Assembly: GCA_025331445.1 (NCBI GenBank)
Contig: JAIWNE010000109.1
Span: 1-64,000, forward strand
Length of the DNA: 64,000 nucleotides
Direction: 5' to 3'
From: Blakeslea trispora
Taxonomy: Eukaryota; Mucoromycota; Mucoromycetes; Mucorales; Choanephoraceae
In this document: positions 10,025-62,190 of the stretch, piece by piece
Layout of the letters: the number at the start of each line of letters is the position of its first letter
Position numbering within the stretch: the stretch's first letter is position 1
Notes under the pieces: model-generated
Database searches by the model: none
What the model was told of the DNA's origin: nothing
What the model saw: only the letters and a program-made list of their open reading frames with translations
Program-made: the position numbers and the translations under genes

Positions 10025-13000
10025 TTATACTCTTCGATTTCTTCTTGTGCTTGCTGATAACCTAGCAGATGGATTGTTATGACCTGCACTCAAATTGTTG
10101 CTTCCGTTACTATAGTTTGGATTTGATAAAGATGAGTTGTTGTTTACAATTCCACTACCACTACTGAGACTATCGTTGCTATTGTTCGATGCATTTGAGT
10201 AATGACCTGACGAAGGTGAGAGCCCCAAACTAGCCATGCCGCTTCGAATACCTCCACCACCTACAATTAGATTATTGTTTATTCCAGAACTGATCCCTAA
10301 TCCTTTGTTTTCATGGCTGAAGAGCTGGTTAGGTGACCCTTCTGCTCCGCTGCCACCATAAAGGGTTCTTGGCCTTCTTGTGCGTGAAGCACTATTGACA
10401 GCAGAGGTACGAGATGTACTTTGTAATGCTATGACAATTCTCTTTGAGCTTTTATTGAAGATCCAATGAGCTTTTTTTTTTACCTTGTTTTCTCTGTTTT
10501 TCATGCCTGGCCTGCACCGACTTGAAATGAGTCAGTAGGTCTTGATACTTGATTGTACTGGTTTCTTCTATTTTTGTCTTGCCTAGTTGCTTTCTGTCAG
10601 ACGATGATGTTGTAGAAGAAGTAACAGGACTAATGGATGAAGACGATGAATTTTGAAATGAGTCATCTTGTACTTTTGATCAAAACTAACCTTTTGGGTA
10701 AGACATGTAGAAATCCTAGTGAAGAAACACTATTAAGTCTATTCCTTAATGTCGAGAATGCAGATGATTGTGGCAATAACATCAGAATACCATAGAGGCA
10801 CTTGAATAAATAGGGGTATTTTCCAGGCTCAAGTAGTTGCAAACGAAGATCTAAAGAGGATGTCAATCTTGTTTTTGTTCACTTGCTTTTTTTTTTCTTG
10901 GTGACATACATGTAAAAACAGGTGATTCTAGTAGTTGGACTAACTTGTCAATCTGAATTAACATGTTGACTGTGATCTCTAATTCAGCGCTTCATAGACA
11001 ATATTAATAAACAACCGTATGTATGTCCCTTTTCTTTTGACTTACAATATCTGAAGCATATTAGCAGCATGCTCGTACACTTGAGATAGCAAGCACAGGG
11101 AGAGGGCAGATACTGCATTGTGACACCATGAGCGGTACAATACATTAAACAGGCGTTGATTGTCTTTTAACTCTAGATTGCGCAATCGTTTTCTCAGGTC
11201 AGATAGTTCAGAAGAAGTAACTAGGATGATGTTCAAATTCTGAATCATGATACTGGCAAACTCCAGGTCTTCATCTTGTTCTAATATATCTGCAATAGCA
11301 CAATAAATACGCTCAGGATCAAGACTCATACACAGCTGACGGATAATCAAACTACCGCGTGTTTCCAGAAGACGCCTGTCAGTGCTGAATAGCGAAAGCA
11401 ATGCTACGATAAAACTGCGAAAATATTCATGATCTGAATGAGATGAGATCTGTGCCAATAGCTGCAAGTCACGGCGCACTACTTCTTCCGATGAATCAGA
11501 TAATGTCTTTAGCAATGCTGGAAAAGTGCCATCATCCGATGTAAGAATCTTGTTGGGTGCTTTTTTATGGAGCATGAGCAACCAATCCAAGCTCGCTACC
11601 CTAGTTTCTTCATGCTGATTTAGAAACTGAAGTCGTAAATTAGCTACTGTAGCTTGATAGTCAAATGGATCTGCACTGCTATCCACTTGATTCATCAAAG
11701 CAGATTTGTTCTTCTTTTGCTGAATCTGAATACCACCGGAGGGATCGCTTTTACTGGTCGTTGGCTCAGGCTGATGTACGGGTGTCTCAAGTACAAGTTT
11801 CTGAAGGTTGCGGTTCATCTCAAGGGCAATCATACGTATTTCGGCTACAGGATGAGCAAGCGAAGGTAAAACTGCTTTTATGATCTCAGGTGTGAATTTG
11901 ATAATCACATCTTTGGCGATCTCAATAAAGGCATTAATCCATAGTAAGGCCGTTTTTTGGATGTCTTCTTCTGTTGAAGAAAGGTGTGGAACTAGGATTT
12001 CGACAATGCGACTGTACTGTACAATAACACCCTGACCCGGAACATAGGTTCCTTTACCATGACCGTCATTTTCCGCATCAGGTATCTCTTGTTGTTCTGC
12101 TGTATTCTCTTCTTGCGTCACTAGCTCTTTGTCAAACACAATAGATTCCGACAAGCTCTCTTTGTCTTCTTCTTTTGTCCCAGCCTGACTCAATTGCTTT
12201 CGCTGGTCCTGTTCCCTCTGAATTTGCAGTGAACGTGCTGCTGCTGCTTCTTTGATTTCACTCAAAAAGTCTTGAAGCAACCCATTGGTCGCGACTCGAA
12301 CATCTTCACTCGCATCATTCAGACAACGAATCAATCCATCCAAGAACTCGGGCAGGAATGAAATCAATTCAAGATCTGGGATAGAATCCAAGACACACAT
12401 CCAAGAGACCAAGAACTGTCTTGCTGCTGAATTTCGAACATAGATACGTTGGCTGAGAAGGGGTATAAATCGAGGCAGAGAAAACGCTGTATTTCTAGGC
12501 AACGAAGATGGCGTTGGCAGCTTCTCACCACCTGCTTCTACTGAGTTATAAGGCTCGCTATAAGGTGAAACATAAGTAGTGGAAAGCTCAGACACAATAT
12601 CTTTGATGAGACGATCAAGCAATTCAGCGCCATTCTTGACACTAATCTCAGAATCAGCTGAAAGCTATAGTCAACAAAAAGAAATCAAGAAATGGTTGAG
12701 CCATCCCTCTGAATGACAAACAAAGTTCGAGAATTTTTTGTTCAAACTTACTTTACATAGTGCATCAAAAACACTATTGAAATATCGTAAAACTTCGCCT
12801 TTAGCTACTTTAGCTATATTGTACATACTCTCGCATGCATAATATCGTACTTTTTGGTCTTGGTTACTAAAACAAGACAAAATGGGTGGTACAATTATAT
12901 CCAAATATTGAGAAACACCCTAATATACCAAAAGAAAAAGAATGGTATAAATGAACACGCAAAACATAGCCATTCAAAATCTTACTGGGCCCAAAGCAAT

Positions 13001-13412: not shown

Positions 13413-14297
13413 TTATTTAATGAGATGTTTGTTAGTAGTTAAATAGTGCTCCAATGTTTCTGGCTTCTTTCCAGTAAGGATTTCAATACATGGTGTTACC
13501 CGCTGCATATCAGAGCCTACAAGGTTGTCAACCATATCCAATGCGATAGGAGGGGGTGTGTGATGCTCAACCATTTTATGATAGCGCTCAATGGGAGTCA
13601 CTTGCTTATAAGGGATCTCCCGTCCAAGAATTTTCGAAAAGATAGCAGCTCGTTCAGCTGGAGTTACAACATCGCTATGTAAGCCATAGACAGCATCTCC
13701 ATACTTGTTGGCATCACCTTGCAAAATAACAGCAGCGACAGCACCAATGTCGTTGGGAGAAATCCATGATTGAGGCTGGTCGGCAGGGATATCATCGCAT
13801 ATATATCCTTCTGTGTTGACATTAGACTGCCAGAACAAATTGGACATAAAGACGCCAGGACGTAAAGCAACAAACTTGCCCCGATTAGGGATGTCAAGTA
13901 CACTCTTTTCGCCTAAATAGTGTTCTTGACCAAGGTAAGAGCGTCTCCAGCCATGGTCAACAGTGAAGGAAGAGATATCAACTATTTGCTTGACACCAGC
14001 AGCATAAGCATATTCAGCAATCTCACGCTTGATTTCGGCAAATCTAGAAAAGTCACTCACAAGCAGAAATAGACGAGTATGCCCCTTGACTCCTTCTTTA
14101 AGAGGCGAAAGATCACTATAATCACCTTTTACTACTTGGATAAGGTTATTGTTTGTCGTAAAAGTGGTCTTGACCTTTTCGGGATTACGAGCATAAAGTG
14201 TTACAGGCACATTGTTGGCAACAAGATCATTGACCGTTTTGACACCAATGTTTCCAGTACCACCGATAATAAAAACGCGTTCAGTTGAATTGGACAT
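13413..14297 (-). CDS. NmrA-like NAD(P)-binding oxidoreductase
   Basis: A single-exon protein of 294 residues. The N terminus, RVFIIGGTGNIGVKTV, is a Rossmann GxxGxxG dinucleotide-binding loop. VTLYARNPEKV follows as the second strand, with an Arg suited to NADP(H). VKQIVDISSF, GKFVALRPGVFMSNL and ISPNDIGAVAAVIL match the atypical short-chain dehydrogenase group that includes NmrA and quinone reductase-like proteins. The classical YxxxK catalytic pair is not evident, as is common in NmrA-like regulators that sense NAD(P). I start at ATG 14297; the frame continues upstream only through a poly-Phe/Lys stretch from an A/T run. The substrate is unknown. Confidence 0.88.
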   Translation of the reverse strand: MSNSTERVFIIGGTGNIGVKTVNDLVANNVPVTLYARNPEKVKTTFTTNNNLIQVVKGDYSDLSPLKEGVKGHTRLFLLVSDFSRFAEIKREIAEYAYAAGVKQIVDISSFTVDHGWRRSYLGQEHYLGEKSVLDIPNRGKFVALRPGVFMSNLFWQSNVNTEGYICDDIPADQPQSWISPNDIGAVAAVILQGDANKYGDAVYGLHSDVVTPAERAAIFSKILGREIPYKQVTPIERYHKMVEHHTPPPIALDMVDNLVGSDMQRVTPCIEILTGKKPETLEHYLTTNKHLIK

Positions 14298-15014
14298 GGG
14301 ATATACAGTAGCAGATGCTTTTTTACGAAAAAAAAGTAAAGAAAAGAAAAAAAAAAACTTTGGCACGTTTTATATCAAAGTCTAATTTTGAGTTCAGACA
14401 TTTATGCCACTGCACCGGATAAATTTTAGTTACCTGTCCCGAAAGAAACCAAGCATTAGTCATTTATGAGATCTGAATCTAGTCGATTCGATTTTGAGTA
14501 GCATACCGAAACAACTTTCTTAATGTTGCGTATGTGAATGAGGCGTCAACAAACATGAGTGCTCGTGATGAATGAGATAGTTTCTCATGCCTTCCTTTTA
14601 TTTTCTCTTTCTCTCATAGTTGCTATTACTAATTAAATCAGACTTACTGTACAGCTCATAGTCGGGGACTATTCACCCACTTTTCACCTTCTAAAACACA
14701 CACATACACTATTTTTGGAAGTCTTGAGACATTAGCTGACATTGATTTGGAGCTTTAAACACCTTGATTTCCCAATAAAGCGTAAGAAGGCTTTTGTGTG
14801 TTTTGCCCAAACATGGATGTTTACAATCATCATTATCCAATTTAAGTTATTTGGTAGCTCAGCTCAAACCTCTCTCTTTTTTTTTCTTCCTTAATAAGCT
14901 AAGCACAAAAAAGAAGCAAAAAAGCGTAGATCTCGTACAGTAATGTGTTAGGTACACACTCGATATCTGTGCAAAGTTATGACACCTTTCTTTTTTAAAA
15001 AAATTCGAGGTGGT
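14298..15014. other. Intergenic, no recognised gene
   Basis: About 0.7 kb between the start of the NmrA-like gene and the 3' end of the Nup93-like gene. It is AT-rich with polypyrimidine tracts and presumably holds the NmrA-like promoter. No domain or repeat was recognised. Confidence 0.5.
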
Positions 15015-15703: not shown

Positions 15704-16918
15704 TGTTGGTATATGTGTATGTAGTTTAAGTTAAGAAGCAAGAAAATACACTTTATCATCCTGCCTTTCAAAAAAAATATGGCCGTGTGACGTGTTTGTG
15801 CCTATGACCATAAGTGAAATACTTTTGGAATCAAAGAAACATCCCACTATATCACAACAGAAAATCAAGCCATCTCATATTATTATCACCTCGTTAACAT
15901 TTCCCAAAACATATAAATACTCCATTGATTTCTATACAATAAACGATATCTTCTTATACTTATAAATCTATCTACTAAACTTGACTCTATTTCTCATTTG
16001 ATGTCCGACAATCATTACAGGCTGATAGTCATAGTTTGTTTATCTCGCTAAAAGCAGGTGAGACTCAACGAGCTTTCACCACCTCAGCGATGCAGTATAA
16101 CAGATGCAGACTCTGATCTGGCAATTTAAAGCTTCTATACTGCATGTCAACTTCAACCCAAAAAAAAAAGTCAGCGTAACAGATTGCTATTTTTTATCTT
16201 CAAAACTAAGCTTGACTCTCACCACGCATATCAAGCAGAAGGTAGGTTGCATTTCTGTGTTTGAGTCGGTTATGTCTCTTTCTTTTTGTTTTTCTGAAAG
16301 AAGTGGATTGCATCACGAACGAGAAGCCTTTTTTATGAATAAATGCACTTTTACGCAATAAACAACAACTGCTTACGAGTTATTTTATGGATTAAAAACG
16401 CAAAACTGGGCAATTTGGGACATGAGGCCGAGATGAGCTTGCATGTTCCCTGAGATCGTCTCTTTCCAACAACTTTTCGTTTACGAGCTCATCATCTTTT
16501 TGTAAATCTTTGAATTATGATCTTTTTAAACTTCTCTTTAAAGTGTTTTACATTTATTTTTTTTTTAGAAAAAAGTATTCGTTTTGGAGTAAGTTCTTCA
16601 GTGTACTTTTTAATGCAGTTTGTTATCGTTTGCAGTAGTTTTCCAAAAAAAAAAAGCAAAATAATCTAAATTGCTGTAAAATCTGAAGCAGGGAAGACAT
16701 AGCCAGAAACAAATGACTATTGAAAGTCCAAAACATACTTTGACAGATCTGACTAAAAACAACAACTTTCAGTGGTGAAATAGAAAAAGGCAATTCATGC
16801 AAAAAAACATTTTGTTCGACCCGAAAAATAGTTTCTACGGTCCGGAACAAATAAAAATTAGGTGCCCGGCTCGGATTTTATTACAATATTTATTTGTTTG
16901 CGTTAAAAAAATATATGA
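15704..16918. other. Intergenic, no recognised gene
   Basis: About 1.2 kb upstream of the Nup93-like gene and upstream of the tRNA. Short frames here show no domain, no repeats and no convincing splice structure. Confidence 0.5.
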
Positions 16919-16990
16919 GGTTCCATAGTGTAATGGTTATCATATCGGTCTTTGAATCCGGTGATCCGAGTTCGATTCTCGGTGGGACCT
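16919..16990 (+). tRNA. tRNA-Gln (UUG anticodon)
   Basis: A 72-nt cloverleaf. The acceptor GGTTCCA pairs with TGGGACC (one G-U). The D-arm is TAGTGTAATGGTTATCATA. The anticodon loop CTTTGAA carries TTG, reading CAA (Gln). The T-arm is CCGAG-TTCGATT-CTCGG. The discriminator is T and CCA is not encoded. There is no intron. The last pair of the anticodon stem, next to the loop, is a T-T mismatch. A T run follows immediately. Confidence 0.95.
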
Positions 16991-16994
16991 TTTT
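16990..16994 (+). terminator. RNA polymerase III terminator of tRNA-Gln
   Basis: A run of five T directly at the 3' end of the tRNA, the usual Pol III stop signal. Confidence 0.75.
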
Positions 16995-17305: not shown

Positions 17306-20300
17306 CTACATTTTTTGAAGAACTAGGTATATAGTATGAACGATAGGTAAATGATCGTGTTCAACGGTTTCAATATCTATCTCAGTGTCTTCATTTTCCT
17401 CCTCTTGGTCTTCTTCTTCAACATATTTTTGCTTACGATCCTTTGAAAACCCTTCTGGAACAGCTACAACCATTTCCTTTAGTCGAAGTTGATCTCGATT
17501 GATGTTCTTTTCGATATCTTCTTGGACGAGTAGTGTCAGAGGCCAAAGTTTCCCTGTAAATGGATCACGTATATCTTTTACACCTATGATCAACATTCCC
17601 TTGGGCGCTAGTTTTACCAAAGCTTCTTCTGCCAATGAAACGAGTGACTTTCTATATTCATTGATACACTTGGGTGATAAATTTTCCAAGTGGTTCGAAA
17701 TCATGAGGACTAAACTGCCATTCTCGTATGGTTTTATCTGCATCATGTTTTCATAATGTATTACATCTTCTGACTCTTCGCTTAGCTCAGATATAAGACC
17801 CTAATTTATCCTTTGGATGTTAAGAAAGCGAGTAAAGATATATATATTCAGGCTTACCAATTTAAGCAAAGTCTTGTTGTTTTCTTGAATTCTTTCAACT
17901 CTCTGCCTTTCATATTCTGATAGAGGATTGCTCTCAGAAGAAGTTTCTTCCTGAGATTTTGCTAAATTTACAAATCAGTTTTTGCTCAACACTCTTATAA
18001 TTGTTAACCATAAACTTACCCATATGATGAGGCTTTTCTGTAGAGCTCGGCTCATTTGTCAACGACTATAGTAAAAAAAAAATCATCCACTCTTGTAGTT
18101 AAGAAATGTGCTAAATATTTTGATTTTGCTTTGTTGTTCTTACATCAAACTCGAATTCTATATGTTCCCAATTACCGTCATCTTTACCAAAGCGCTCAAC
18201 CATACGTGAGACGCACAAGTCCTTGAACTGGTGTTCCTCAGTTGGCTTGAACACCCAAACAGTGCCCATCACTACGCTTTTTCTAGTGATGGCGGAAGAA
18301 GGCACACCCCGAATAGTACGTCTACAATTAGCCTTTTCTTGTAGGCCTTAGATTGAATGTCAATACAAATCAGTACACTGAATCGAAAAAGTTAAAGGTA
18401 CTAACCGCCATCAGCATCGTTGATCAACATTCTGTCAATATTCTCCTGTGGTATCTTTCTAAAAGTTGCAATAAACTCGTGTGTGAAGACTAAGAAATCA
18501 TATTGGACACATAGTACTGATCCTAGACCAAATGCTGAACAATAACGTTGCCTTTTTACAATCTATGGATGAGGTTGAGAAAGAGCTTAAACTTGTAGAC
18601 TCTTGTTTTCGTGCTTAAATATATTACCAATTCTTCAAGTTCAAATCCATTGTCAATATAAAGCCTCATTAGCTGGAAGCTAACAGGTATATAGAAGCAA
18701 TGCTCTCTATTATCGCCTATACCCAGAGTCACTCTTCTGCTCATTTTAAGAAGTCTAGTTTAACGGCATCATGAATAAAAGTGTCAGTCAGTGTTGTATA
18801 GCAAGATCATTGCGAAGGTACCTCCAACTTTCCTGAACAACTTTTGTATATTCAGTTTTAAAGTCTTCCATGTTTGTAAACCTTAAAAATGCTTTACATT
18901 TAATTTGATTTGAAGTGCAACTAAAAGAGAACTTCTTACCTAGAAAGATCGCCATCTAAATGAGTTGAGTAAGCAACGCAATCTTTATAAGGCGGGTGGG
19001 AGAGAACATGATGGAACGATTCGTCACTAAATAATGTGCCTGACAAATTTCGAGAATCGGCTTGGGCAATGATGGGTCGATATTCAGCAGAAGTCAACCC
19101 TGGAGGAACCTCAAAGCAGCAATTGCGCTGAGATAAAGATACAGCAGCCTGTTTTTTTTTTTCCCGAAAAAACTCTTAATACAAGCAACATAAAGCATAT
19201 TGCCAAGTTGGCAAACAAAACTTACTGGATTGATGTCTACACCGCAACACCTTTTTAAAAGCAAAAACAAAAGTATTAGTTTTGAATCCCCTCATGTTAC
19301 ATTTATCTTACCTTCTTTGAAGTAAAAAGCACTCAATAGCATCTGTACCTGGAAGTGAAGCTGAGTGTTAATACAAAAGCACTCATTGTTATATGTTTAA
19401 ACAAGCCTACCTCTACCAAGAAAGTTTGATAGGACTCTTTCATCTTTACTCGTATATTTCAAAATGGCTCTAATTCAGAGTTTAGCAAGATTATCTTGAT
19501 ATAAAATTCTTTTGCCTAACAAACCTTCGTACTGTCTGCGGTAGCCAAGTTCCTACAACACAATGTGTTGGCATAATAATTATAATGAAAACATATTTTT
19601 TTTTGTTTGCTAAATACCATGATAATCAGTTCCAGAATGAGAAGCCCATCGTGGTGCTCTTCCAGGTATATCGAAATATGTTGAATCAAAAGTCAATGAA
19701 AACATTTGATGTGGTTGTGGCTCATATGTAGAAAGCCTTGGCCCAGTTGAGGTTTGACTGAATTTGGTTAGCGAAAGAGTATCTCTGGTGAAATAAGGTT
19801 TATGAGAATAATCGTCTATAGAAGTAGCATAATGGTCTTGTTCATGATCAAAACTATCTAAAGTATAAGAGTTTCCGTCGTTGTCTATCAGCAGAGCAAG
19901 CTGAAAGCAAGAATCACACATAATGACACCACCGTCATAGCCCTTTCGCCAAGCGCTTGCATCATATGTACCGCAATAGCAGCAAGATACAGGAGTTGTT
20001 CCATCCGCCAATTTCCTACGTCTTCGAGGAAACATTGGCTTTCTTTTTTTCTTGGCTTCATCTGAGAGATTATAGTGAATTACTTGTAGTATGGCAAATT
20101 TCGATTTATACTTACTGGCGCATCTTGTTTCTTCTTTAATTCTTGCGGCTTCCCTTGCTTTTTGAGCTTCCATTTCTTTTAATATAGCAAATGCTAGCAC
20201 ACATTGAATGAGCATATCGTTACAACAAACATTAGGGTAATACATACATGTTTCTTCAAATTCATCCTCATTATGCTCGTGACTTCTTGGAGATTTCTCG

Positions 20301-23300
20301 AAGCACTAAACTCTTTGTTAGCAGAGAAAAAAAGCAGGAGAAATCCTAGTTCAACTCATTTACCTCAGCACAAAGATCAAATGACTGAAAATAGCTTTCT
20401 GATGCACATGAGACACATGTAAACCAAGACTCATCGGTAAGTTTTTTCGTGCAGCCATCACAATTGAATATGTTAACATAAGTGTCTATCAGTGCTATAA
20501 GTTAGATCTCTTTTTGAAAAAGAAAAAACAAAACAAAACAAAACAAAAGCAATGAAAATTCTACCTTTTTTGTTATAATAAGCTTCATGAATACTGCACC
20601 AGAATATGACGCCGCTTCTAAAGTAACTCACAGGCTTTTGTGCGCAGGGCAAATGATAGCTTTTGTTGCATTTTGAGTCGAAGCAGCCTATTGTTGCACC
20701 TTTTTCTTTACAACCATGGCATCTCTTTATAAAAACAAGAAGTGATTTAATATTTTGCCAAAATGAGCTGATTCTACTTACCATTCCTCTTCCACGTCTC
20801 AGCGCCAGAGTGACATTATACCATTTTCCTTCTGGGGTACAAAACACTTCTGGAGAATATCTGGCACATGAATCATGTGCCCAAAAGGATCTTTTCTTTT
20901 CAACGCCATTCTTGTTAAAAGTTGAAATGATAAAAGGTCCAATAAATTGGCCTAATTCTTCAGAGTTGTCTTCGTCATCGTTACAAAACGCGCAGACTTT
21001 TCTGCTCCTCCATTTCTTTAAAAGTTTATATCCTTGATCAGTTTGGTTGGTTGTATCTCCTTTAAACACTTGACTAGCATTGGTGGCAAGGTCAGCATCA
21101 TTCTCTTTTCCATTTAATGAGTCAGTTTTAGAGCTTGTTTCGACAGAAGGCTGACTCTGCACAGATAGGCTCGGTATTTCTTCTTCTACATTCGTGCCTC
21201 CTATGTTTGAACTTGGATTCTCGTCATTAGGTATCGATGTATCTAGGATGTCTTCTTCCCATATGGTAACCAGTTCTCCTTTGATTGGTTTAGGTCCAAT
21301 AGCTGAGTCAATCACAGACTGAACTGCAAAGCCTGATCTTGGATGTTCATGCCAAAATGGAAAACTTTGGTCGAAACATCTGTTTTTCTTAAAATTAGTA
21401 ATCAAAATGAATAGCTTATTCTCCCAAAAATATAAAGCTTCACCTTAAACAAAGATCAAGTCCTTGATTGTCCTGTTTCTCAACTGATGTTTCACAGTAT
21501 GTACAATAATATCTGAACTGTTTGATGACAACATTGCATTGATTACAACACACCTTAGTTCTTGATTCTTCATTCACTAAATCAGAAGATAGAGTTCATC
21601 AGTTGAACGTTAGTTTTGTTTGTGTAATGAATACCTTCGTTTTGTGTATCAGTAGAGACTTCATTGGTATTGGATTGTTCTGCAACAGAACAATTTTCGT
21701 CTGATTCTACATCTGCTAAGGTAATACGTTTTCTACTGAACCTATTGATCAAGGGCTTTTGTGGCTCTCTTTGATTAACTTGTGAGACAACCTCAGTACA
21801 TTCATGGTCCATTGCTTCATATCGTTCACTATATCCTGGTTCAATACACAAAACCTCATGATCATTGTCGATAGGTTGAATTCTTCTACTGCCCAACGCA
21901 ATAAACTCATCAAAGGCGTCAATCCAACCACAGTAGTGAACTCTGACCTTGTTCTTATGCATCGATACAAGTCGACCTTCGTAGAGCTTCTTATCAAGAT
22001 GTAGTACTGTAACATGTTGCATATATGTATAGCCATAGACGTTTGCAACAAACTTATGAGCTTTTGGAGCTCTTGCTTGAGCTAGCCGAAGAGAAATTAT
22101 ATGAGGTTCATTAGGGGTTTCATCAGGCGTTTCTGGTGAATCGGATGCGTCTGATAAATTGGAAGAGTCGCTCATTTCTTCGACAAAGGAAGGTGTATGT
22201 CGCTTCTTTCTGGGCTTTGTAGATGGTTGCTTCTTTCTCTTAGCTGAAGCTGTTGTACCCTTGCAAGATAAACTGGAGGAGCATGTGTTGTCGTCAAAGT
22301 GATCAGAGCCAAATGTATTGTAATCTGTTGTTGATGAGCCATAGTCTCGCTCTACCATCTTTTCCTTGGCTTTTTCTTTTTGTTGTCCTTTCTTCCTTTG
22401 CTGCTTAGTATCTAACTTCTCAAGCATTCCTAGAGCATGGTAGTCTTGTGGTCTTATGATTTGTCTTTTCTTGTTCTTTTTTACTTCGTCCCTTATCTCA
22501 GGATTAGATTCTGCAATCAAAAAGTCAGAAGTGGTCTTTTTGTCAGTAGATGTTGGCGTAGGCGTTGAATCATGAGAAACTGAATCTGGGTCGATGTTTG
22601 CTACAGCAGCATCATTTTTTTGCGAGTTTTCGCTTACTTCAACACTTGAGGCGATACGAATTCGTCGACTTCCAACCATAATCCATTCGTCATAGATATC
22701 TGCCCATCCGTCATAATGAACTTTGACTTTTCCTGTCTTCATCTCTATCAATGTGCCTCGTTCCCAAAACATTGCCTTTCCAGATCTTGTATTCAACACT
22801 TCAACTGCTTGATTATAAGTATAACCATAAGGGTTTGGAACAAACCCATTATCGTCCTTCAATTGACGCATAGCTCTCCTTGTAGCGAATGCACCAGTTG
22901 TCAAGAATTGTGCATCATGGATTGGTTTCCTCTTTCCAGTGCTGTTTGCGCTAGCTTCTGTTGATTTGGACTTGCTTTGCTCGGCACTAATTTGTGTACC
23001 ATTGGTAGTTTTGCTTTTGTAATGGGAGTTTTTCTTATTTTCACTGGAAACCAATTTCTCTTTGACAGAGGAAGAGTTTTTATCGGATTTTAGTTTTGAA
23101 GCATGAACTGGTGCTGCCTTTGGCTTACAACCGTTATCTACAGAATGGGGTTGGCTCTCGTCGATCTTGGCATTATGACTTTTCGCATGCTTCGCAGTAG
23201 TATTTGTGGGTACTTCTTGGATACTAAAGTCTACATTGTTTTCAGAAAGCAAGACTTCTTCCTCTTTATTTGATAGCAATCTTAGTCGGCGACTCCCAGC

Positions 23301-25164
23301 TGGAACCCATTCTGACAAGTGAATTTCAGGATACCAAACACGAACTTGATCGTTCTGCATCTCTCGAAGATAGCCTATACATTCATCTTTTGTTTTTCTC
23401 TCACCCTTCTTCTTGGAGAAAAAAGTAACAGATACAGCTCGATTGCGACGATATCCAAATGAGTTGGGTTTAAACCCATGCTCATCTGTTAATTCACGAG
23501 CCAATCTTCGAGTCATAAAGATATCATTATTGTTGAAGATCTGCGTCTTGTTGCTATCTAAAGTCTGACTAACATAATCATCATTTTTTGGACGACTTGA
23601 ACTGCTTTGATTTGCATGACTTGAACTATTTTTACTAGACTGGATCTTGTTGGTATGTTCTGGAGCTGTGTTAGGTCTTTAGTAATTATGAGCAGATCAA
23701 TTTCTTCTTCTTCTTACTTTTTATATCTGTCTGTTTTTCTGGACTTGCTGATTCTGTTTCTTGCTCATCTGGGAGCTGTCTCAATCGCTTGCTTCCCATT
23801 ACAATCCATTCTTCTTGGTCGTTCCAATCATCGTATCTAACTTTGACTTTCCCTTTTTCCATCATTTCAAGTGTCCCGCTATACCAGTTACCATTGATAT
23901 TCAGTACTTCCACCTTTTGCTTGTGAGTAAGACCGTATGGATTAGGGTAGAAGCCGAACTTGGGGTCAGCCAATACCTTGGCAGTCTTTCTGGTCATAAA
24001 TGCACCAGTGGTATAATGAAGATCAGTCGAGCTCTTTGACTCATTTTCCTGCTTGTCAAGAGTTGTCATCATCTTGATGTTGGTTTTGATTGAATAGGCT
24101 GATTTAGTAGGAGGTACTATAGCAAGCTTTTGACTTGGTTTTGATTGAGACAGCTTTTTTGGTGCACCAGAAGCTTTCTTGTTTTGAGTTGCAGATCTGC
24201 AAGACTTGTTCTCGTCTTGTGCTTGTGGCTCGTTTGCTTGCTCATTCGTATGTGGCTTACTATCTGCGTATTTGAGTATTTGCGAGGAGATTTTATGGAA
24301 TAGAGTGTTCCATTGCTTAGTACAGTCTGAACAAGGCTTTATCGTGTCAAAAGGTGTACGAAATTCAGGGCTATTTCCGTCTTGGGTAACACATTTGTCA
24401 CAAATATTTGTACTTTTCAGGTTACTCGAATCTTCAGTTCTCATGCTAGTACGTTCAATCATACCAAGCTCAATCCATGGACCCAGCACATCGTCATCTG
24501 ACTGTAACGACTCAACAGAATGAGCATCTAGTTCAGAGGATACGGATATTATGGATTGTGTGTCGCTTTCTTTAGAATCACTGTATTCATTGGGGGAGAT
24601 TTCATGTGGTGTTGATAGCTCTTCTATATTTCGATTTTCAATCTCAGCTACTTCTGTTTTGGAAAGAAGCTCATCGGCTTGTTTTGATCCCATTACATCC
24701 CATCTAGTTATGCGTCCATCTCTCGTTCTACGCTTTTTGGTATCTGCAATAGTGTCAATTTCTACTCCATTGTTGTCTTGAAAATTTTGTGAAGGATCAT
24801 GGTTAGACTTTAAGCTGAACTTTATTCCGTTACAGGATTCCATTGGATGTAACTTTGAGTCTGATACAAATAAGCTTTCTCGGCCTTTTCTAGCTCGGAA
24901 CAGTCGGATGAATGGTTCTTCTGTAAGGGACTGTTGTCTTAAGGTTTTATCTCGAGTTACAGGTGAAGCTGGCTTTTTAACAAGCTTTTTTCCACCCTTC
25001 AGCAGTAGCTTGCCCATGAAGCTGCCAAATCTCTTATCCTTCTTCTCGTAATCAGCATCTTGATCTTGCTTCAAGCTTTCATGCTTGTCAGAAAAAAGCT
25101 AATATGTAATATTTTTAGATATATGTTATCATATACACAATAAATTACTTACGGGTGATTTCAT
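17306..25164 (-). CDS. Giant chromatin-reader/DNA methyltransferase fusion (Tudor-knot x4, ZZ x2, ePHD, GATA-like, N4/N6 MTase)
   Basis: About 22 exons give roughly 2,190 residues from ATG 25164 (MKSP spliced to LFSDKHESLKQ). I followed frame and phase through every junction. Four Tudor-knot/chromo-barrel-like repeats lie at about residues 372-444, 515-592, 719-800 and 991-1060; the first contains GKVKVRYDDWNDQEEWIVMG. A ZZ-like finger follows at 1145-1200 (CCNQC, YYCTYCE, LDLCLRCF, HEH). An extended PHD lies at 1312-1430 (CAFCNDDED, FWAHDSCARYSPEVF, CHGCKEKGA, SYHLPCAQ, WCSIH), and a second ZZ-like finger at 1440-1500 (CDGC, FTCVSC, LCAECF). A GATA-like finger is near 1553 (CCYCGTYDASAWRKG, MCDSC). 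The methylase begins near 1670: TWLPQTVRR, motif I VLSNFLGRGTDAIE, CCGVDINP, motif IV LSHPPYKDCVAYS (DNA 18986-18997 for SHPP-Y), and later VTLGIGDNR. This is the bacterial/archaeal N-4/N-6 DNA methylase family. It is probably nuclear and would modify cytosine N4 or adenine N6 in chromatin. Specificity and activity are inferred. Confidence 0.85.
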
Positions 25165-26599: not shown

Positions 26600-27190
26600 T
26601 TTGCTTGCAAAAATAAACTTCTCTTCCTACTTTTTTTTTATAAATTGAACTCTCAAGCTACATTCAACAACTCTCAACTCACCGCTGCTAAGCCTCAAAT
26701 TAAACAAGCTAACGAAGCTTCTGATTGGGACAGCTACGATGTCAAAGAGTACTTGTCTTCTGACGAGGAAGTCATTGTTGAGAAAGATGAAACCAACTTC
26801 GACGAGTCTTCTCACAACATGAATGAGGAGTTGAGCAAGGCATTTTTTGTAGGCGCTAAGTTTAGGAGCATGGAAGAGCTCAGGGAAAAGGCTAAGGATT
26901 AGCAGAGGAACTGAATTTTGAGTGGGAAATACTCAATTAGCTAACGAAAAGAGCACCAGGGCTCACAAGTCTGGCAGAAAGGAATGTCCTTTGCGTATCT
27001 ACGCCAGTAAGGTACGTGATGTTGAAAATCCTTGGGAGGTTCGACAAGTCACTATCGAGCATAACCATGCTCTGAGCAATGACTTGTCGACATATGTTGT
27101 TTAAAGAAAGCTTGCTCCCAAAGACTTTGAGTTTGCCTGCAGCATGATGAGAAAAGGAGAGACGCCTAGTGTTGTCTTGAAGGTAAGCCA
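26600..27190 (+). pseudogene. Relic of a FAR1-type MULE N terminus
   Basis: The open segment 26640-26902 encodes NMNEELSKAFFVGAKFRSME followed by ELREKAKD and a stop. The next segment (from about 26940) reads KSGRKECPLRIYASKVRD, then VRQVTIEHNHALSNDLSTY. These are the two halves of a FAR1 DNA-binding domain and match the element at 58.1-58.75 kb. Stops and frame changes separate them, and the transposase core is absent, so the copy is dead and truncated near 27190. Confidence 0.8.
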
Positions 27191-61081: not shown

Positions 61082-61996
61082 TCACTTTGCTAGACGGATA
61101 TATTTAGAAATAAGCAGATCTTCTTGCTCTTCAAGTGGTCTTTTCTTGTTCATGGCACTAGGCGCTAAAGGAGGTGTACAAAGAGGGGAGATTGTATCAC
61201 TACTATCACTATTATATTCAGTACTAAGCAATGATGCTTCACTACAACTATCGTCGCCGTCATCGTCATCATCATTGTCATGACTACTACTTTTCTTTGT
61301 ATCGTCATCATCATGGTCATGACTATCTTCAATTAAAACATGACTGGATGAAGCTGCGGGTTTGGGTTGCGCAGTTGGAGCAGGTGGGTCTTTTTTAAGC
61401 TGATGAATCAGATTCTTCTTCTGAATGTGCTGATAGAGCAGAGAAACCCATTTGTCATACAAAGGCTTTGAAACGTGTAGTCGATAATCAATGAGTTTAA
61501 GAAAAACAAGTTCGGATGCAGTGATTTCCGCAGCGCTTAAGCTAGCAATCTTGGCCCATGTTTGGGTTCGGTAATTTCGGTCATGAAGGTACTTTGAAGC
61601 AAGTATTAATGCGGTCAGAAACATGCGTCGACTACAGGAAACGAGGCAGTGTGTGCTTGAGTGGATGAGTTTTTTGATACGAAAGATGTAAAATAGAGCA
61701 AGTTGAAGCATGGAATAGGTTGCTTTTGATCGTTGAAGTATCTCTCTGATGAACACTCTCGTTGGCAATATAGTCTTTGTCGTTGGTTTTTGTTTGTTAA
61801 GCCATATGGAGTCAATGATTTCTGCTGAAACGTCAATCAGTCGATCAATCATCATAGATTTTTGTTGACAAGGAGTACTTGAAATTGGATGATTCAGTTG
61901 AAATAATGCCTTTTGAATGGATGGTAAATGAACCATACTTTTGAGGCATTCTAATGTAGAGTCTGATATGTATTTTTCTATAGTATGTGAAGACAT
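61082..61996 (-). CDS. PHO80/PCL-type cyclin
   Basis: A single-exon protein of 304 residues, start ATG 61996 (MSSHTIEKYISDSTLECLKS). The cyclin box reads TRVFIREILQRSKATYSMLQ, ALFYIFRIKKLI, RRMFLTALILASKYLHDRNY and TWAKIASLSAAEITASELVF, then LKLIDYRLHVSKPLYDKW. The KYLHDRNY and NxxE-type pattern is characteristic of cyclins that partner the Pho85 kinase (Pcl1/Pho80 group) in cell-cycle and nutrient signalling. The tail is low complexity (Pro/Ala, then Asp/His/Ser-rich from about residue 215), ending PLEEQEDLLISKYIRLAK. A GAGA run sits just 5' of the start. Confidence 0.88.
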   Translation of the reverse strand: MSSHTIEKYISDSTLECLKSMVHLPSIQKALFQLNHPISSTPCQQKSMMIDRLIDVSAEIIDSIWLNKQKPTTKTILPTRVFIREILQRSKATYSMLQLALFYIFRIKKLIHSSTHCLVSCSRRMFLTALILASKYLHDRNYRTQTWAKIASLSAAEITASELVFLKLIDYRLHVSKPLYDKWVSLLYQHIQKKNLIHQLKKDPPAPTAQPKPAASSSHVLIEDSHDHDDDDTKKSSSHDNDDDDDGDDSCSEASLLSTEYNSDSSDTISPLCTPPLAPSAMNKKRPLEEQEDLLISKYIRLAK

Positions 61997-62190
61997 GATA
62001 AAGTAAGAGAAAGAGAGAGAGAGAGAGAAAAAAAAGAGAGCCTGATATTTATTTATTTTAGGGATGAACAAAAATAAAAAAAAAATCAGTCGAATTTATT
62101 TTTGATCAAATCCATTAAAACGTATGATATGTACATATCCCTCACTCTCTTCTTGCAAATAAATACATGTGTTTATTGTTGTGCCGAAGA

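What the first reader, a model, noticed from the sequence alone, without database searches (positions are those of the whole stretch)
17306..25164. A single gene fusing four Tudor-knot repeats, ZZ, ePHD, ZZ and GATA-like fingers to a bacterial-type N4/N6 DNA methyltransferase
Seen: intron phases link all domains into one frame of about 2,190 residues. The methylase keeps motif I (NFLGRGTDAIE), DINP and motif IV (HPPYKDCVAYS) and the downstream GIGD block. Known: this methylase family is mainly prokaryotic and methylates cytosine N4 or adenine N6. Early-diverging fungi are known for abundant 6mA, attributed to MT-A70-type enzymes with a DPPW motif, which this is not. Inference: the protein could place or maintain methylation in response to histone marks read by its N-terminal modules. 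Whether the architecture has been described I cannot check.
Basis: partly seen in the sequence, partly recalled or inferred. Interest (0 to 1): 0.88.

Follow-up and report, generated by a model that had tools for sequence, protein, structure and literature searches.

The report
Fungal chromatin-reader-fused DNA methylase
A single large fungal gene joins probable chromatin-binding modules to a bacterial-type DNA methylase; relatives occur in many early-branching fungal groups, and its function is untested, so it may write a DNA mark that has not been looked for.

Summary
Confirmed. The minus-strand gene 25164..17306 splices into one 22-exon frame of 2191 residues; the database model for Blakeslea trispora (P0051) differs by 3 residues. 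Of 120 listed full-length homologues, 104 carry Tudor-like, ZZ, ePHD, ZZ, GATA-like, methylase and C-terminal parts in that order. Every listed hit with an organism name is an early-diverging fungus; no Dikarya was listed.

The methylase passes the PF01555 cut-off, with motif I before IV and an unusual HPPY motif. Short bacterial relatives share the signature; a 5mC methylase (one only a fragment match) lies within 5 kb in 3 of 3 loci with long flanks.

Best reading: an active chromatin-guided DNA amino-methyltransferase, distinct from MTA1c and MetB, base unknown. Against: no characterised HPPY enzyme found, PDB fold matches led by tRNA Trm11, activity untested. My searches found no paper on this family.

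The parts
17306..25164 (-). 22-exon coding region, 2191 residues (2188 with the database's intron-6 acceptor)
   Evidence: spliced; equal to P0051 but for 3 residues
23773..24012 (-). Tudor-like repeat 1 (residues 367-446)
   Evidence: Tudor_4 6.5e-7 and Agenet 7.8e-7, both above cut-off; place
23274..23528 (-). Tudor-like repeat 2 (residues 511-595)
   Evidence: no Pfam hit alone; internal repeat, aligned and found by the family HMM
22653..22901 (-). Tudor-like repeat 3 (residues 720-802)
   Evidence: MBT 21.6 bits, cut-off 22
21873..22106 (-). Tudor-like repeat 4 (residues 985-1062)
   Evidence: MBT 0.059 only; found by the family HMM
21328..21547 (-). ZZ-like finger 1 (residues 1152-1203)
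   Evidence: ADA2-type ZZ 0.02 here (double zinc ribbon 0.011), 3.8e-5 in P0190, all below cut-off; ZZ-like finger before the ePHD in 115 of 120 homologues
20584..21003 (-). extended PHD finger (residues 1312-1432)
   Evidence: PF13771 5.6e-8, above cut-off; closest solved relatives of the Phycomyces homologue include KMT2D, PHF6, BRPF1
20258..20465 (-). ZZ-like finger 2 (residues 1449-1498)
   Evidence: ADA2-type ZZ 8.4e-5, below cut-off; ZZ-like finger after the ePHD in 112 of 120
19904..19984 (-). GATA-like zinc finger (residues 1554-1580)
   Evidence: PF00320 0.0022, below cut-off; 118 of 120
18455..19675 (-). methylase domain (residues 1657-1893) spread over exons 10-18; motif I NFLGRGTD 19341-19426 (split by an intron), DINP 19226-19237, HPPY 18987-18998, GIGDNR 18706-18723
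   Evidence: PF01555 39.8 bits against cut-off 26.7; coordinates
18147..18281 (-). conserved linker with a G[ST][VTI]W block (residues 1932-1976)
   Evidence: block present in 21 of 21 rows taken (where each row was cut around a match to that block); no profile similarity to the AdoMet-binding half of a methylase
17309..17716 (-). second, degenerate methylase half without HPPY (residues 2056-2191)
   Evidence: hhalign Prob 83.9, E 7.7e-6, 0 of 200 shuffles (weaker); order of helices and strands in the AlphaFold model of a homologue

Best explanation
The gene encodes an active chromatin-associated DNA amino-methyltransferase, the Blakeslea member of an old family of early-diverging fungi. Shown: the fused architecture, conserved AdoMet-binding and catalytic-loop residues, kinship with short bacterial and phage DNA methylases, a C-terminal segment resembling a second, degenerate methylase half, and a tree that broadly follows fungal groups. 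Inferred: the Tudor-like, ePHD and ZZ modules dock the protein on nucleosomes; the GATA-like finger next to the catalytic domain helps place DNA; the first domain methylates an exocyclic amino group (N4 of cytosine or N6 of adenine); the degenerate half, lacking HPPY, acts as an in-chain partner that helps fold or grip DNA, as METTL14 does for METTL3 and MTA9 for MTA1 (analogy recalled). In Mucor it is unlikely to be the main 6mA writer, because mta1 or p1 deletion left no symmetric 6mA detected and metB deletion cut 6mA by 70-75% (PMC11258239), so 4mC, a locus-restricted 6mA, or a stage-specific mark is most likely.
For: One 22-exon frame, same protein in the database. 104 of 120 listed full-length homologues have the whole order Tudor-like, ZZ, ePHD, ZZ, GATA-like, methylase, C-terminus. 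PF01555 above cut-off; PDB sequence profile best 2zie putative modification methylase 9.5e-13; PHROG DNA methyltransferase 4.1e-14; viral structure library led by phage methyltransferases and DNA methylases, with giant-virus N4-cytosine methylases below, 5.8e-15 to 2.1e-8 among the first ten. Signature invariant across 5 fungal and 5 bacterial-type rows: G1700, G1702, D1719, HPPY 1773-1776, YS 1782-1783, D1789, S1791, G1825, R1828, K1857, Q1859, HE 1882-1883 in P0051 numbers. The methylase is the best conserved part in 6 of 7 species compared (62-87% identity in all 7, C-terminal half 37-60%; in Rhizopus the ePHD is 88% against 87%). A C5-cytosine DNA methylase gene or fragment lies within 5 kb of the bacterial relative in 3 of 3 loci with long flanks (no chance control made). 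AlphaFold pTM 0.88 for methylase plus C-terminus of a Coemansia homologue.
Against: The first catalytic residue is His, not Asp, Asn or Ser; a search of the held library for HPPY with methyltransferase gave no characterised enzyme. HPPY in L001-L003 is partly built in, because the scan patterns contained it; L023 and P0221 were not found by those patterns. The best PDB fold matches are tRNA m2G10 methylases (Trm11/TrmN, 2.4e-10) and then general class I methylases. In a Coemansia homologue (P0161) the PUA_4 'RNA methyltransferase PUA domain' passes its cut-off over a Tudor-like repeat (1.2e-9). Two earlier tests of the C-terminal repeat were weak: Prob 13.8, and Prob 2.8 with 3 of 100 shuffles scoring higher. 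The first half of that second domain shows no sequence similarity. No expression, binding or activity data.
Confidence: 0.58

Rival explanations
1. It is a chromatin-bound reader or scaffold with a dead methylase: the fold still binds AdoMet or DNA, but His in place of Asp/Asn/Ser has ended catalysis.
For: HPPY departs from the catalytic consensus; the second half has clearly lost it; no characterised HPPY enzyme found.
Against: HPPY in 154 of 154 fetched proteins that match the frame PPY-x5/6-YS plus D[LI]S (the frame was required; 67 of 221 do not match it, 7 of these 67 contain HPPY anyway and none shows LS-x-PP[YFW] with another residue); the methylase is far better conserved than the C-terminal half; the same signature occurs in free-standing bacterial proteins, which would have little else to do.
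Confidence: 0.2
2. It is an RNA methyltransferase (tRNA, rRNA or nascent RNA) brought to chromatin by its reader modules.
For: Foldseek against PDB leads with Trm11/TrmN; 5e71 Trm11-type is the second sequence hit (1.4e-7); motif order I then IV is shared with them; PUA_4 passes its cut-off over a Tudor-like repeat of one Coemansia homologue, and is below cut-off here; mRNA cap methylases appear lower in the viral fold list (3.5e-8).
Against: No THUMP match in Pfam at E up to 1; sequence profiles favour PF01555, 2zie and phage DNA methylases; beta-class DNA methylases are permuted, which penalises them in a sequential fold search; the viral library gives phage methylases lower E-values (E-values of two libraries are not strictly comparable); bacterial relatives sit near 5mC DNA methylases.
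Confidence: 0.15
3. Two neighbouring genes, a PHD/Tudor protein and a methylase, wrongly joined.
For: Only DNA was available here; no transcripts.
Against: Phases join across every intron; 104 of 120 listed full-length homologues carry the same fusion in full; P0190, an unnamed metagenome protein of 804 residues, holds a Tudor-like repeat, ZZ, ePHD, ZZ, a GATA-like stretch (by eye) and the methylase.
Confidence: 0.02

Closest known systems
Bdelloid rotifer N4CMT (PMC8885841; passages seen)
   Same: PF01555 amino-methylase of bacterial origin in a eukaryote with introns; fusion to a chromodomain is recalled, not seen in the passages.
   Different: SPPY motif, 4mC activity shown, orthologues confined to bdelloids in that paper; here HPPY, Tudor-like/ePHD/ZZ/GATA-like modules, a second degenerate half, and presence in many early-diverging fungi.
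Mucor MetB (PMC11258239; abstract, passages and section 11 seen)
   Same: Bacterial-type amino-methylase in early-diverging fungi, with a fungal clade that follows taxonomy.
   Different: MetB is PF02384, related to type I methylases and MmeI, and writes asymmetric 6mA; this protein has no PF02384 match at E up to 1. The same genome carries PF02384 places elsewhere.
MTA1c / AMT1 (MT-A70; PMC11258239, PMC12695648 passages)
   Same: A catalytic and a non-catalytic methylase copy working together is the closest functional analogy for the C-terminal half.
   Different: MT-A70 family PF05063 with DPPW on separate chains; no PF05063 match here; MT-A70 genes lie elsewhere in the genome.
Bacterial mobile-island HPPY methylases (L001, L002, L003, L023, P0221)
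   Same: Same motif order and invariant signature.
   Different: About 294-301 residues, no reader modules; a DpnI_C-like helix-turn-helix at the C-terminus of L023's protein (2e-4, 21.9 bits against a cut-off of 23) and, weaker, of P0221.
Trm11/TrmN tRNA m2G10 methylases
   Same: Best PDB fold matches, same collinear order.
   Different: Have THUMP and DPPY (recalled); weaker in sequence than the best DNA methylase.

Membership tests
PF01555 N6_N4_Mtase | Score above the curated cut-off | tested here: met
   27.1 bits full length, 39.8 domain alone, cut-off 26.7
Beta-class DNA amino-methylases | Motif IV before motif I (class rule recalled) | tested here: not met
   Motif I at residue 1700, HPPY at 1776; Pfam match in two stretches, the best one, over motif I, to the end of the profile
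DNA amino-methylases in general | Catalytic [DNS]PP[YFW] | tested here: not met
   HPPY in 154 of 154 testable proteins of 221 fetched
DNA amino-methylases in general | Methyl transfer to N4-C or N6-A of DNA | not testable with these tools
   needs an enzyme assay
MetB family | PF02384 domain | tested here: not met
   absent at E up to 1
MT-A70 (MTA1, METTL3/4) | PF05063 with DPPW | tested here: not met
   absent at E up to 1; HPPY instead
Rotifer N4CMT | SPPY plus chromodomain (the latter recalled) | tested here: not met
   HPPY; Tudor-like repeats instead; DNA cytosine-N4 methyltransferase 8s9n matches only the motif I region, 2.5e-4 (that 8s9n is the rotifer enzyme is recalled)
Trm11/TrmN | THUMP domain (recalled) | tested here: not met
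   no THUMP match at E up to 1
Extended PHD finger proteins | PF13771/PF13832 above cut-off | tested here: met
   33.3 and 31.8 bits against 29.1 and 27
Histone-mark readers | Binding of modified histones or nucleosomes | not testable with these tools
   needs binding assays; no aromatic-cage comparison was made

The most novel reading that the evidence does not exclude
Early-diverging fungi carry a third, unstudied DNA-marking pathway besides MTA1c and MetB: a single polypeptide that reads nucleosomes through Tudor-like, ePHD and ZZ modules and writes N4-methylcytosine, or a restricted N6-methyladenine, with a His-Pro-Pro-Tyr active site and a built-in degenerate methylase partner, taken from a mobile bacterial or phage methylase near the root of fungi and missing from Dikarya.
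Probability: 0.3. Interest if true: 0.9.

Novelty: new variant of a known kind. Interest (0 to 1): 0.74.

Why it matters
Bacterial-type amino-methylases captured by eukaryotes are known from a few recent reports (rotifers, liverwort, Mucor MetB; PMC12344493 passages). Here the capture looks older and wider: it is found by name in Mucoromycota, Mortierellomycota, Glomeromycota, Zoopagomycota, chytrids, Neocallimastigomycetes and one Rozellomycete (group names recalled). The writers deleted in Mucor did not include it, as far as the main text shows. If active, it would add a writer to the question of why 6mA and related marks differ between early fungi and Dikarya, and it can be tested by removing one gene in a laboratory Mucor strain.

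Tried and rejected
Contamination: rejected. Of 9 other open frames of the window tested, three give ordinary fungal genes (Vac14, NmrA-type, cyclin), one a FAR1-like fragment and five no hit; the gene has 21 introns, and the contig length (114,886) equals that listed for the Blakeslea protein.

Two-gene reading: rejected (see rivals). Paralogues in the same genome: a protein search found six pieces, all in this gene.

Complete second methylase: not supported. The stretch before the C-terminal half (linker with the G[ST][VTI]W block) has no profile similarity to the AdoMet-binding half (score 7.9; 81 of 100 shuffles as high), although its predicted helices and strands come in a compatible order. 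I claim only the second half.

Viral relatives by DNA pattern: none confirmed. Sample of the phylum of L003's genome: 2 of 299 genomes had a match at 1e-8, one of them the genome started from. VIA-align comparison: the library was not ready on both tries. Blastocladiomycota were not seen by name either. An earlier count of mine (115 of 120) tested fewer order constraints and let either ZZ profile match either finger; the stricter recount is 104 of 120.

Literature: searches (listings) and passages of PMC11258239, PMC12695648, PMC8885841, PMC13297926, PMC12344493, PMC7862722 and PMC8298701 showed no description of this family. The 2016 Iyer and Aravind survey is not held; the 2017 Mondo paper I did not try to open. 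Either might mention it. No supplement was read.
Full report
What is there. The gene lies on the minus strand. Reading exons from ATG 25164 to the stop at 17306-17308 gives 22 exons, 21 GT-AG introns of 52-78 bases, and a single frame of 2191 residues. The window sits on a contig of 114,886 bases in a 37.2 Mb assembly, and the database protein P0051, annotated as a hypothetical protein of Blakeslea trispora on a contig of that same length, is identical except for three residues at one splice site. The shorter form is probably right, since the Phycomyces homologue also lacks these residues. No RNA evidence was available.

Domains. Pfam puts ePHD, MBT, Agenet and N6_N4_Mtase above their cut-offs on the whole protein. 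The four Tudor-like repeats differ in strength when cut out: one passes, one is just below, one is weak, one has no hit; they share a common pattern. The two ZZ-like and the GATA-like fingers are below cut-off in this protein. What makes them credible is conservation. With profile HMMs seeded from this protein and retrained on the homologues, the 120 listed full-length homologues all have at least one Tudor-like repeat (4 have one, 23 two, 34 three, 59 four), the ePHD and the methylase; 118 have the GATA-like finger and 117 the C-terminal domain. Because the two ZZ profiles match each other's fingers, I recounted by place: a ZZ-like finger lies before the ePHD in 115, after it in 112, on both sides in 107; the whole order Tudor-like, ZZ, ePHD, ZZ, GATA-like, methylase, C-terminus holds in 104 of 120. 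These 120 are the listed part of 173 hits, limited by the search to lengths of about 1200-3800 residues, so they are biased to full-length models.

Who has it. Three searches of 5.8 billion proteins gave 50, 173 (120 listed) and 98 hits. Every listed hit with an organism name is an early-diverging fungus: Mucorales and relatives, Mortierellomycota, Glomeromycota, Kickxellomycotina, Dimargaris, Basidiobolus, Syncephalis, Smittium, Spizellomycetes and other chytrids, Piromyces, and Paramicrosporidium (Rozellomycota); the group names are recalled. No Dikarya name appears. Many rows are unnamed metagenome proteins. A maximum-likelihood tree of 47 methylase rows needs 7 changes for 7 groups (least possible 6; shuffled mean 25.4). 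Mortierellomycota, Glomeromycota and the bacterial rows each lie on one side of a branch; Mucoromycotina (2 changes), Zoopagomycota (3) and chytrids with Neocallimastigomycetes (2) do not; the 28 rows of terrestrial groups join at 96/93. Seventeen of 44 inner branches are unresolved, several rows are long, one bacterial-type sequence (P0221) was entered twice, and the root is a midpoint. The simplest reading is one old origin and mainly vertical inheritance. In this genome a protein search found the methylase only here, beside PF02384 (3 places) and MT-A70 (2 places).

What kind of methylase. The domain passes PF01555, but the match comes in two stretches because motif I precedes motif IV. Against PDB sequences the family profile ranks a putative modification methylase (2zie) first (9.5e-13), an archaeal tRNA Trm11 (5e71) second (1.4e-7), then MboIIA and N4-cytosine methylases. 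PHROG families called DNA methyltransferase match from 4.1e-14, the best in one unpermuted stretch. A deep-branching homologue (P0020) finds 14 phage or archaeal-virus records at 2e-6 to 6e-4; eight of them are annotated as DNA methyltransferase, DNA methylase or N4-cytosine methylase, the others as hypothetical, ParB-like or not at all. Bacterial relatives were found in a Burkholderiaceae bin, Azospirillum and a cyanobacterial bin, a Salmonella genomic island and a metagenome (P0221). They are single-domain proteins of about 300 residues. Of the four loci, three have flanks of about 5-6 kb, and all three hold a match to C5-cytosine DNA methylase (PF00145) 1.2, 4.8 and 3.1 kb away, the one in Azospirillum (L003) only to the last part of the profile (2.6e-5); I made no estimate of how often that happens by chance. 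The fourth contig is only 4.1 kb. Across five fungal and five bacterial-type rows the glycines of motif I, the acidic residue after it, HPPY, YS, D and S of the DLS block, G and R of the GDxR block, K and Q of the KxQ block and the HE pair are invariant. For L001-L003 the HPPY was part of the scan patterns, so their agreement on that motif is not independent; the rest of the signature is.

Structure. AlphaFold on P0173 (a Coemansia homologue of 572 residues holding the methylase and C-terminus, 82-row alignment) gives mean pLDDT 86.1 and pTM 0.88. Foldseek against PDB leads with Trm11/TrmN at 2.4e-10 and then many class I methylases. This is evidence for the RNA rival, tempered by the fact that sequential fold alignment penalises the permuted beta-class DNA methylases. 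Foldseek against predicted viral structures leads with an uncultured-phage AdoMet methyltransferase (5.8e-15), and lists a mycobacteriophage DNA methylase (2.3e-13), a phage modification methylase (9.1e-13) and giant-virus N4-cytosine methylases (4.3e-10 and weaker); mRNA cap methylases come further down (3.5e-8). E-values of the two libraries are not strictly comparable. The longer Phycomyces model with the zinc fingers is less certain as a whole (pLDDT 78.7, pTM 0.65).

A second methylase half. Residues 2056-2191 align with the HPPY-to-HE half of the first domain: GVKDIR with GIGDNR, the KLWPL and FYIPV segments, LRLKEMVV with FELEELIV, and the closing HTIYLVLQK with HEFIATFRK. With 22 rows on one side (18 fungal-type, 4 bacterial-type; 2 of the 24 chosen dropped out when the segment was cut) and 17 on the other, hhalign gives probability 83.9, E 7.7e-6, score 37.1 over 91 columns, against at most 19.75 in 200 column shuffles. 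Two tests with narrower alignments were weak: probability 13.8 with P 0.002, and probability 2.8 with 3 of 100 shuffles scoring higher. The model's elements support it: strand 440-445, helix 456-476, strand 482-487, helix 500-516, strand 517-527 and strand 562-570 follow the same order as strand 133-138, helix 162-179, strand 180-190, helix 202-212, strand 215-225 and strand 248-256 of the first domain. HPPY is absent, so this half should not be catalytic. The stretch before it shows no sequence similarity to an AdoMet-binding half.

How it most likely works. The methylase is the best conserved segment in 6 of 7 species compared, from Rhizopus to Piromyces: 62-87% identity, against 37-60% for the C-terminal half, 35-78% for the Tudor-like repeats and 50-88% for the ePHD, which is one point ahead in Rhizopus. 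That and the signature shared with free-standing bacterial proteins argue for catalysis. The reader modules argue for chromatin; solved relatives of the ePHD include KMT2D, PHF6, BRPF1 and JADE1. On the other side, PUA_4, an RNA-methyltransferase domain model, passes its cut-off over a Tudor-like repeat of one Coemansia homologue. I commit to an active chromatin-guided DNA amino-methylase at 0.58. Which base is open. In Mucor lusitanicus, whose homologue keeps HPPY (P0086), no symmetric 6mA was detected in mta1 or p1 mutants, and deletion of metB cut 6mA by 70-75% and removed its motif; the mutants measured there were metA, metB, metC, mta1, p1, dmt1 and a metA/metB double (PMC11258239, section 11). 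This protein is thus unlikely to be the bulk 6mA writer under those conditions. The main text mentions 4mC once, in a reference title, and does not mention this gene's number.

What is known. A 2026 review of fungal 5mC and 6mA names MTA1c, MetB and METTL4-type enzymes (passages); the 2025 survey of eukaryotic 6mA deals with MT-A70 and mentions MetB (passages); the rotifer paper reports its PF01555 gene's orthologues absent from other sequenced eukaryotes (passages), which concerns its own orthologues. The searches named under Tried and rejected found no description of the present family, though one database record calls the Mucor ambiguus protein 'DNA methylase N-4'. Bacterial-type amino-methylases taken up by eukaryotes are therefore a known kind; this is a new variant by architecture, active-site motif, degenerate second half, likely age and spread.

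Noticed in passing
L001 5746-6642 and 7818-9248; L003 5746-6633 and 11455-12153; L023 4989-5873 and 9001-10626: Small HPPY methylases in bacterial mobile or genomic islands lie close to a C5-cytosine DNA methylase gene or fragment; the Salmonella island copy is annotated only as conserved hypothetical and ends in a DpnI_C-like helix-turn-helix just below cut-off.
   Followed up: partly
P0189 and P0190 (metagenome proteins): Homologues whose frames end just after the GSVW linker, lacking the C-terminal half; P0190 packs one Tudor-like repeat, ZZ, ePHD, ZZ, a GATA-like stretch and the methylase into 804 residues (by eye, ZZ also).
   Followed up: no
window 26922-27101 (+): Fragment resembling a FAR1 DNA-binding domain (6.3e-5, below cut-off), perhaps from a MULE-type transposon, about 1.8 kb upstream of the gene's 5' end.
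   Followed up: no
window 16918-16991 (+): tRNA-Gln (TTG) gene about 310 bases beyond the 3' end of the coding region.
   Followed up: no
window 11045-12664 (-), 13416-14369 (-), 61085-62095 (-): Ordinary fungal neighbours: Vac14, an NmrA-like protein, and a cyclin.
   Followed up: no
L010, L011, L012 (own genome): Three PF02384 places over the cut-off in this assembly; which of them is MetB was not worked out.
   Followed up: no
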